Of a stretch of DNA of 64,000 nt, positions 38,534 through 39,235 are shown piece by piece. Every line of letters starts with the position of its first letter. Within the stretch, counting starts at the first letter, position 1. The stretch is taken from assembly GCA_963457665.1 (NCBI GenBank), contig OY735219.1, positions 16,255,032 through 16,319,031 on the forward strand, in the 5' to 3' direction. This stretch comes from Thysanoteuthis rhombus (Eukaryota; Mollusca; Cephalopoda; Oegopsida; Thysanoteuthidae). The notes under the pieces were generated by a model that was given only the letters and a program-made list of their open reading frames with translations, was not told the origin of the DNA and did no database searches. The translations under genes and the position numbers were made by a program.

Positions 38534-38552
38534 ATTTGATTCACTCTTCAGG
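38534..38552 (+). repeat. 19-bp direct repeat left of the palindrome
   Basis: ATTTGATTCACTCTTCAGG is repeated exactly at 39137-39155, on the other side of the palindrome. It could be a target-site duplication of the whole inverted unit or part of a tandem duplicated tail. Confidence 0.7.
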
Positions 38553-38591
38553 ATTTTGTATTCTTGTGTGTGTGTGTGTGTGTGTGGGCGC

Positions 38592-39106
38592 GTGTCTCTA
38601 TCGCTTATAGAGAGGGAGAGAGAGAGAGAGAACAGATATATTTCATCCAACAGAATGAATTACAAATCGCATTATATTGTATAGAATCTTATTTAAGATT
38701 ATTTCCCATTGTTACATGGTTAATATATCACTTGCCGTAAGCTATGTAAATAAAATAAACAATTAAAGAAAATGGGGCTGCTGCAGGAATCAAACCTGCC
38801 AACAATAGGGTAGCCACTTCAACTTCGGGCCTTTGCATTACCTGCAACTGTTTAGCTCAATGGTAAGAGCATTGCCATGTTGACCTGCCTATCCTATTGA
38901 TTCCTGCAGCAGCCCCATTTTCTTTAATTGTTTATTCTATCTATGTTGTTGAGGGTGAGTGATATATTAACTGTGTAACGATGGGAGATCATCTCAAGTA
39001 AGTTTCTATATAAAATAATGTGAATTGGAATTCATTCTATTAGATGAAATTTGTCCTTTCTCACTCTCTCTCTCTCTCTCATATATATGCAAAGCGATAG
39101 AGACAC
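38592..39106. mobile_element. 515-bp palindrome of two inverted tRNA-like SINE copies
   Basis: The outer edges are GTGTCTCTATCGC (38592-38604) and GCGATAGAGACAC (39094-39106). Arms of about 250 bases meet near 38849. Moving inward, both carry GA/CT runs, an ATGAAAT/ATTTCAT block, AATTAAAGAAAATGGGGCTG (38761 on) and its reverse complement ending at 38932. The centre is tRNA-like. On the plus strand TAGCTCAATGG (A box) starts at 38853. On the minus strand GGCAGGTTTGATTCCTGC makes a 5-bp T stem with B box, followed by AGCAGCCCC like a 3' acceptor. The plus copy has lost 12 bases in its B-box region. Transcription across it could fold into one long hairpin. Confidence 0.8.
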
Positions 39107-39136
39107 ACATTTTTGTATGATTTACATTTTTCATCT

Positions 39137-39235
39137 ATTTGATTCACTCTTCAGGGCGAGTGATGTATTAACCATATAAAGACAGAAGATCATCTCAAAT
39201 AAGTTTCTATATGATATAATGTAATTTATGATTCA
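39137..39235 (+). repeat. Second 19-bp repeat plus extra SINE tail copy
   Basis: Starts with the 19-bp direct repeat. It continues GGCGAGTGATGTATTAACC, AAGATCATCTCAAATAAG and TTTCTATATGATATAATG, matching the SINE tail at 38954-39030. Confidence 0.65.

What the first reader, a model, noticed from the sequence alone, without database searches (positions are those of the whole stretch)
38534..39235. 515-bp palindrome built from two inverted tRNA-like SINE copies, flanked by an exact 19-bp direct repeat
The arms match for about 250 bases each and the centre is tRNA-like on both strands: A box on plus, T-stem/B box plus acceptor-like 3' end on minus. The 19-bp repeat ATTTGATTCACTCTTCAGG sits on both outer sides (38534 and 39137). 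One reading is head-to-head integration of a template-switched SINE with one target duplication. Another is a tandem tail duplication, since SINE tail text recurs after 39155. A transcript would make a long near-perfect hairpin, a possible small-RNA source.
Basis: partly seen in the sequence, partly recalled or inferred. Interest (0 to 1): 0.7.

Follow-up and report, generated by a model that had tools for sequence, protein, structure and literature searches.

The report
Two-ended insertion of tRNA-bearing mobile element
The 515-base palindrome is a genuine, old insertion of a short mobile element with a tRNA-like part, in the two-armed head-to-head form that this element often takes in this genome and that resembles the unusual Penelope-type retrotransposons more than ordinary SINEs.

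Summary
The palindrome is real: arms match at 180 of 213 positions, the RNA folds at -276.8 kcal/mol (z -27.7), and the flanking repeat is 20 nt exact within 34 of 38. It is not one-off: three genome searches gave 7336, 3602 and 4126 first-look candidates. In two samples chosen without regard to palindromes, 31 of 50 loci are head-to-head and 1 of 50 tail-to-tail. The repeat is a ~330-bp unit (leader, tRNA-like head, body), also found as direct partial tandems with a near-constant junction. Copies end mainly at two sites 36-38 nt apart, S and F. Head-to-head copies mostly have one of each (34 of 42 classifiable, 21 expected). Flanks are rich in TA. Most central junctions differ and F and S arms are not separate lineages, so palindromes seem to form anew at insertion. 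This matches the published anatomy of Penelope-like elements: partial tandems, inverted pieces, optional 30-40 nt tail, both target strands cut and extended, AT-rich targets. No ORF, shared pLTR or hammerhead was found, so Penelope mobilisation is inferred. The window copy is unusual: both ends F-like, arms sisters.

The parts
38515..38552 (+). left copy of the target duplication (38533-38552 exact, 34 of 38 overall)
38553..38591 (-). outer end of left arm, GT-rich run beyond the shared arm
   Evidence: sequence
38592..38631 (-). left arm 3' extension: GA run and GTGTCTCTATCGC, shared in inverted form with the right arm; its 13-nt GCGATAGAGACAC has no exact match in the other 101 fetched loci
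38632..38829 (-). left (inverted) arm, unit positions about 129-326, F-like end by eye, 5'-truncated inside the tRNA-like head
38787..38797 (-). B box-like GGTTTGATTCC of the left arm
   Evidence: sequence
38823..38824 (.). head-to-head junction (left arm begins about u135, right arm about u80)
38825..39059 (+). right arm, unit positions about 81-328, F-like end by eye, with about 20-25 nt of leader
38853..38863 (+). A box-like TAGCTCAATGG of the right arm; its B box is interrupted by a 12-nt loss at about 38896/38897
39060..39117 (+). right arm 3' extension: CT run, ATATATGCAAAGCGATAGAGACAC and end of insert
39118..39155 (+). right copy of the target duplication
39134..39236 (+). older, S-ended copy (u199-303), the apparent target of the insertion

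Best explanation
A short non-autonomous retroelement, unit about 330 bp: ~100-nt leader, tRNA-like head with A and B boxes, ~120-nt body and a region with two alternative 3' start points S and F. It moves by a Penelope-type reaction. Steps inferred: (1) a transcript, probably holding more than one unit, is bound by a Penelope-like RT/GIY-YIG protein; (2) both strands of an AT-rich target are cut and each new 3' end primes a cDNA, mostly one from F and one from S; (3) the cDNAs stop inside leader or head and are joined, often with a few shared bases, giving antisense copy / sense copy with tails outward. Steps shown: the architecture, the two 3' ends, the tandem junction, the TA-rich flanks, the mostly different centres. 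The window copy is such an insertion, placed into an older copy and flanked by one direct repeat, but with F-like ends on both sides and arms from one source sequence.
For: Head-to-head in 17 of 30 and 14 of 20 loci from palindrome-blind queries, tail-to-tail in 1 of 30 and 0 of 20; 33 of 40 and 1 of 40 in the biased sample (one of the 30 is the query's own locus). Outer ends FS 34, FF 4, SS 4 of 42 classifiable, 21 FS expected, p 3e-5; blind samples alone 12, 3 and 1 of 16, 7.9 expected, p 0.03. 30 tandem junctions in 29 of 89 loci, period 328 model positions in 26 of 30; of 32 same-strand neighbours that begin in the leader, the upstream one ends at F in 31, at S in 0, at u248 in 1. TA/AT dinucleotide share just outside the ends 0.48 (F, n 63) and 0.46 (S, n 49) against 0.21 at 250 nt (n 112) and 0.20 in the window. 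F and S arms show no separate lineages over m79-196 (p 0.30). A small stem between S and F has C-G in 38 and U-A in 31 of 88 at one pair. Penelope-like GIY-YIG frames (motif recalled) are in the genome. Published anatomy: PMC11167929 (first two of four parts read) and PMC3846280 (passages).
Against: No autonomous Penelope element carrying this unit as its pLTR was found: of 7 GIY-YIG loci L100 has clear copies, as a nested insertion, and L099 a weak 38-nt match at its edge, E 7e-4, not followed up. No hammerhead at E up to 10 in two stretches or up to 1 in four loci. Over 24 palindromes the target-duplication test has mean rank 0.48 with the window copy included, whose ends I set by hand; five others rank 1-7 of 46, but four of these matches are TA or GT runs. 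FF and SS composites exist (8 of 42), and the window copy is F/F by eye, '?' by score. Some centres coincide: L019 and L029 (u120/u97), L015 and L028 (u84/u133). A first test over m79-205 did separate F from S arms (0 of 5000 permutations); it vanished once the last columns, where S arms run into AT repeats, were left out and divergence was allowed for. TTTT directly after the head could stop Pol III. L024 is an inverted duplication that includes its flanks.
Confidence: 0.62

Rival explanations
1. An ordinary tRNA-SINE moved by a LINE, where both target strands prime on two RNAs (a variant of twin priming) and the cDNA ends are joined.
For: tRNA-like head with A and B boxes; Rfam tRNA 27.8, 25.7, 21.3 and 20.9 bits in L031, L026, L065 and L040, all under the cut-off 29; variable 5' truncation; LINE-like frames in the window and at L017, L039, L073 (the LINE label is recalled).
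Against: Published 5' inversion (twin priming) is 0.02% for human germline Alu and 18-22% for L1, with cDNA overlaps of median 12 bp (PMC12016303, passages), against 31 of 50 loci here and a median arm overlap of 147 unit positions in 63 head-to-head loci. The optional 36-38 nt tail at one end and the near-constant tandem junction are Penelope traits in what I read.
Confidence: 0.2
2. A foldback or TIR DNA element, or a palindrome that amplifies as a unit.
For: The palindrome is common; both ends are mostly the same pair F and S; flanks rich in TA; two pairs of loci share the same centre.
Against: F and S ends differ in sequence; copies with no neighbour (7 of 30 and 5 of 20) and with same-strand neighbours (21 of 30 and 5 of 20) are common in the blind samples; most of the 30 resolved centres differ; F and S arms do not form two lineages over m79-196.
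Confidence: 0.06
3. Snap-back: one cDNA folds back and copies itself, so that both arms come from one molecule.
For: The arms of L001, L014, L021 and L022 share rare variants (rank 0 of 50 cross pairs in the rare-variant score; overall p 0.002). In the window copy both arms share a CT run and GCGATAGAGACAC and both ends are F-like. L024 includes inverted flanks. In 8 of 21 FS palindromes the arm with the longer tail also reaches further 5', as snap-back would give.
Against: In the other 13 of 21 FS palindromes of the first set with a resolved centre, the arm with the longer 3' tail is the one cut deeper at its 5' side, so each arm holds sequence that the other lacks. Over 26 palindromes arm identity is 0.761 within and 0.755 between pairs (796 of 5000 permutations as high).
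Confidence: 0.1
4. Two separate insertions, or an assembly artefact.
For: The family is abundant and copies do nest (apparent window target, L100).
Against: Head-to-head 31 of 50 against tail-to-tail 1 of 50. In the 40 loci of the first set, strong leader matches outside an arm's tail (L016, L033, L037) run on in the same direction, as tandems do, and I saw none that looked like the displaced 5' part of a split copy; weak leader matches (E 0.02-10) were not followed. The window arms differ at 33 of 213 positions, so this is not a duplicated or collapsed contig.
Confidence: 0.02

Closest known systems
Penelope-like elements (Penelope/Poseidon clade, pLTR structures)
   Same: partial tandems with 5'-truncated neighbour, inverted head-to-head pieces, optional 30-40 nt tail at one end, AT-rich target, both strands cut and extended (PMC11167929, PMC3846280, PMC8969392, as read)
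   Different: no ORF in the ~330-bp unit, no detected hammerhead, a tRNA-like head; no pLTR shared with the GIY-YIG frames that I looked at (7 loci)
Metazoan retrozymes
   Same: non-autonomous, about 170-400 nt, AT-rich tandem units; thought possibly to rely on Penelope machinery (PMC7229834 passages; PMC8969392 passages)
   Different: retrozymes carry type I hammerhead ribozymes; none found here; a tRNA-like head is present instead
tRNA-derived SINEs
   Same: tRNA-like head with A and B boxes, non-coding, many candidate copies
   Different: head-to-head as a common form, two alternative 3' ends, near-constant tandem junction, TTTT just after the head
Twin-primed L1/Alu insertions
   Same: two cDNAs of opposite orientation within one insertion
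   Different: arm overlap here has median 147 unit positions, not a median of 12 bp, and the form is common, not rare as in Alu (PMC12016303, passages)
Helenus/Ajax/Cassandra (TRIMs with a Pol III gene in the LTR)
   Same: a tRNA or 5S gene built into another kind of retroelement (PMC10886601, passages)
   Different: those are LTR elements with short target duplications and primer-binding sites (passages); I saw no such layout here but ran no separate test

Membership tests
Penelope-like element | partial tandem copies forming pseudo-LTRs | tested here: met
   30 junctions in 29 of 89 loci, period 328 in 26 of 30
Penelope-like element | inverted, head-to-head pieces | tested here: met
   17 of 30 and 14 of 20 blind loci; 7 of 63 head-to-head loci rest on a partner under 60 nt
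Penelope-like element | optional 30-40 nt tail at one end | tested here: met
   F is 36-38 nt longer than S; FS 34 of 42
Penelope-like element | AT-rich target | tested here: met
   part of the TA-rich flank may be element tail
Penelope-like element | ORF with RT and GIY-YIG endonuclease | tested here: not met
   the unit (354 model positions) is too short for one; none of 7 GIY-YIG loci carries it clearly as a pLTR. Hence not filed as a Penelope element, only as working like one
Penelope-like element | hammerhead ribozyme (reported in many) | tested here: not met
   Rfam, E up to 10, two stretches; E up to 1, four loci; minimal forms could be missed
metazoan retrozyme | type I hammerhead in the unit | tested here: not met
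metazoan retrozyme | circular RNA intermediate | not testable with these tools
   needs RNA
tRNA-derived SINE | tRNA-like head with A and B boxes | tested here: met
   consensus boxes; best Rfam RF00005 match 27.8 bits, just under the cut-off 29; ARAGORN found no tRNA in the consensus
tRNA-derived SINE | 3' end taken from a partner LINE | not tested
   no partner LINE was sought by sequence
tRNA-derived SINE | transcription by Pol III through the element | not testable with these tools
   TTTT follows the head in the consensus
foldback / TIR DNA element | the same inverted repeat at both ends | tested here: not met
   the outer ends F and S differ in 34 of 42 composites; copies without an inverted partner exist

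The most novel reading that the evidence does not exclude
A 'Penelope SINE': a tRNA-bearing, non-coding element that has taken the SINE life style but uses Penelope-type instead of LINE machinery, with the tRNA head perhaps doing for multi-unit transcripts (promoter, or cutting by RNase P and RNase Z) what the hammerhead does in retrozymes. Its many palindromes would record two-ended priming, normally one cDNA from each of two adjacent RNA start sites.
Probability: 0.45. Interest if true: 0.72.

Novelty: new variant of a known kind. Interest (0 to 1): 0.52.

Why it matters
How Penelope-type elements finish an insertion is not settled; in vitro work shows that both strands are cut and extended and that reverse transcription starts at two adjacent internal sites. 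A family with thousands of candidate places in one genome, 31 of 50 blind-sampled loci head-to-head, is a natural record of such a reaction and makes the 'one start site per strand' idea testable. It would also be a SINE-like element outside the LINE world. The hairpins would be a ready source of long double-stranded RNA if transcribed.

Tried and rejected
Snap-back, amplifying palindrome, foldback element, nested double insertion and assembly artefact were weighed as in the rivals. An early reading (two SINE RNAs primed by a LINE) was set back when the tandem junction, the two 3' ends and the copies without an inverted partner were seen. A target-duplication test over 24 palindromes singled out the window copy only. 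A hammerhead search was negative. A Penelope element sharing the unit as pLTR was looked for in 7 GIY-YIG loci and not found. One paper search for six phrases such as palindromic, foldback or head-to-head SINE gave 0 papers; one combining Penelope-like, non-autonomous, tRNA-derived, Pol III promoter and SINE listed 12 of 41 papers, and none of the 12 titles names such an element; only open-licence papers are searched. The species was not identified; a search meant to place it (PF14830) did not complete.

Full report
What was checked. The palindrome at 38592-39106 is as described. Arms of 184 nt are 83% complementary, and a gapped alignment gives 180 of 213 matched letters. The single strand folds at -276.8 kcal/mol, z -27.7, 0 of 100 shuffles as low. 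The 19-bp repeat is 20 nt exact within 34 of 38. The arms differ enough to rule out a contig artefact.

It is a family. The whole palindrome as query gave 7336 first-look candidates in the 2.73-Gb genome, with 40 scored. A leader query gave 3602 with 40 scored, and a body-plus-tail query gave 4126 with 40 scored. Candidates are places of a loose first look, not proven copies. I held all 40 scored places of the first search (set A, window included), 30 of 40 of the second (set B, which includes the query's own locus L046, the same place as L025 of set A) and 20 of 40 of the third (set C). Set A is biased to palindromes, B and C are not. Head-to-head neighbours: 33 of 40, 17 of 30, 14 of 20. Tail-to-tail: 1, 1 and 0. 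Same-strand neighbours: 13, 21 and 5. No neighbour: 3, 7 and 5 (a locus may count in more than one class). In 7 of 63 head-to-head loci the shorter partner is under 60 nt, and that of L036 may be spurious; the median arm overlap is 147 unit positions, and 48 of 63 overlap by 100 or more. Mean identity to consensus is 85-88% by arm class (m79-196 and m15-196), so the family is old.

Anatomy. A profile of the unit has a leader, a tRNA-like head (TTTAGCTCAATGG ... GGTTTGATTCCTGCAGCAGCCCC), a body and a tail. Rfam tRNA scored 27.8 bits in L031 and 25.7 in L026 (cut-off 29), and nothing at E up to 1 in L040 and L010; short stretches of L065 and L040 gave 21.3 and 20.9. ARAGORN did not call a tRNA in the consensus. 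TTTT follows the head. Direct partial tandems join the tail to the next leader: 30 junctions in 29 of 89 loci, period 328 model positions in 26 of 30. That count asked for an F end; without that condition, of 32 same-strand neighbours beginning in the leader the upstream one ends at F in 31, at S in none and at u248 in 1.

Two 3' ends. Arms end mainly at ...AATTTATAATTCAT (S) or 36-38 nt later at ...CATTTCTTAATACATA (F); many partial matches end elsewhere (42 of 203 rows). In head-to-head copies the two outer ends were FS in 34, FF in 4 and SS in 4, against 21 FS expected if independent (p 3e-5); the other 21 of 63 loci had a truncated or unclear end. By set: A 22, 1 and 3; B 6, 0 and 1; C 6, 3 and 0. 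For B and C together 12 of 16 are FS, 7.9 expected, p 0.03. The query of C holds the F tail, so SS could not be drawn there. L027 among the SS has a withheld stretch and L036 among the FF rests on a 35-nt match, so the small classes are rough. Between S and F a 4-bp stem is possible; 80.6% of cells pair, and at its inner pair C-G stands in 38, U-A in 31, U-G in 4 and no pair in 15 of 88 (89 of the 97 F tails aligned). The outer pair fails in 32 of 86, and two of the five measures do not exceed shuffles. The change mostly follows two sequence groups, so it may be one inherited event.

Origin of the palindromes. For 30 loci the centre was resolved: left and right arms begin at many different unit positions, with 0-6 tied bases at the join; L019/L029 and L015/L028 share the same join. 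Over m79-196 F and S arms show no separate lineages (p 0.30). A first test over m79-205 had separated them (0 of 5000), and the sites that differ by more than 0.4 are m176 and then m201 onward, where S arms run into AT repeats. I infer that most palindromes were made at insertion and not copied as units. Identity within pairs (0.761) is close to that between pairs (0.755; 796 of 5000 permutations as high), but rare variants are shared more within pairs (p 0.002), which comes mainly from four palindromes, L001, L014, L021 and L022, so one source or later conversion is likely there. In 13 of 21 FS palindromes of set A with a resolved centre the F arm is the one cut deeper at its 5' side, which a self-copied hairpin would not give; 8 of 21 go the other way.

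Targets. Thirty bases just outside the ends have a TA/AT dinucleotide share of 0.48 (F, n 63) and 0.46 (S, n 49); 250 nt away it is 0.21 (n 112), in the window 0.20. Part of this may be element tail, and flanks that overlap other matches were not removed. Over 24 palindromes only the window copy shows a clear target duplication; its ends were set by hand.

The window copy. Both ends are F-like by eye (12 and 11 on a score where the background reaches 13), followed by CT runs and GCGATAGAGACAC, which has no exact match in the other 101 fetched loci. The insert 38553-39117 sits in what looks like an older S-ended copy (39134-39236). Neither arm has both boxes. Its arms share rare variants, so one RNA, two RNAs from one source locus, or snap-back are all open for this copy.

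Comparison. Penelope-like elements are described with partial tandems, an inverted pLTR beside the direct one and an optional 31-bp tail on one of the inverted pLTRs (PMC3846280, passages), and as being 5'-truncated with a second copy in tandem, inverted pLTRs and short 3' extensions (PMC8969392, passages). A purified lizard element cuts and extends both strands, prefers AT-rich DNA, and starts reverse transcription at two adjacent internal sites that correspond to the genomic tail; its authors saw no difference in start site between the strands, so a one-site-per-strand rule is not theirs (PMC11167929, first two of four parts read). PMC3846280 itself prefers self-priming on an antisense template for its head-to-head palindromes (passage). 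The present family shows these DNA signatures, but has no room for the ORF, no hammerhead at E up to 10 and no detected partner. Seven GIY-YIG matches were found; one looks like a host gene of the SLX1 kind and several like Penelope (recalled motifs). L100 is a Penelope-like frame interrupted by unit copies, and L099 has a weak 38-nt match. So I say that it works like a Penelope-type element and do not file it as one. Metazoan retrozymes are the nearest non-autonomous relatives in kind (PMC7229834, passages), but their ribozyme is missing here. Human germline Alu shows 0.02% and L1 18-22% 5' inversion (PMC12016303, passages), so an ordinary LINE-moved SINE would be very unusual in this form.

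Limits. Each search scores only 40 candidates, sets are small, end classes rest on a score cut, and the species is unknown; that it is a mollusc was only a working guess.

Noticed in passing
L100:432-1280: Family copies interrupt a Penelope-like GIY-YIG reading frame (nested insertion).
   Followed up: partly
L024: Both outer flanks of this palindrome are near-identical inverted copies over the stretch printed (over 100 nt), so the inverted repeat reaches beyond the element; fits snap-back or later rearrangement.
   Followed up: no
L099 edge (C35 near 24969250-24969287): Weak 38-nt match to the tRNA-like head (E 7e-4) close to a Penelope-like GIY-YIG frame.
   Followed up: no
window 13300-13784 and 16132-16615: Another inverted pair, 78% over 505 columns, about 2.3 kb apart; not identified.
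   Followed up: no
window 8357-8821, with 55365-55656 inverted to 8468-8759: Open frame with a LINE-like motif (recalled) and a second copy of its middle part in opposite orientation at 81.8%.
   Followed up: no
L016:1415-1467, L033:956-996, L037:1252-1313: Three copies run past F into the next unit's leader and end there (u47-67), as if reverse transcription had started at further internal sites of a multi-unit RNA.
   Followed up: partly
unit positions 185-188 (consensus): TTTT directly after the tRNA-like head, a possible Pol III stop inside the element.
   Followed up: no
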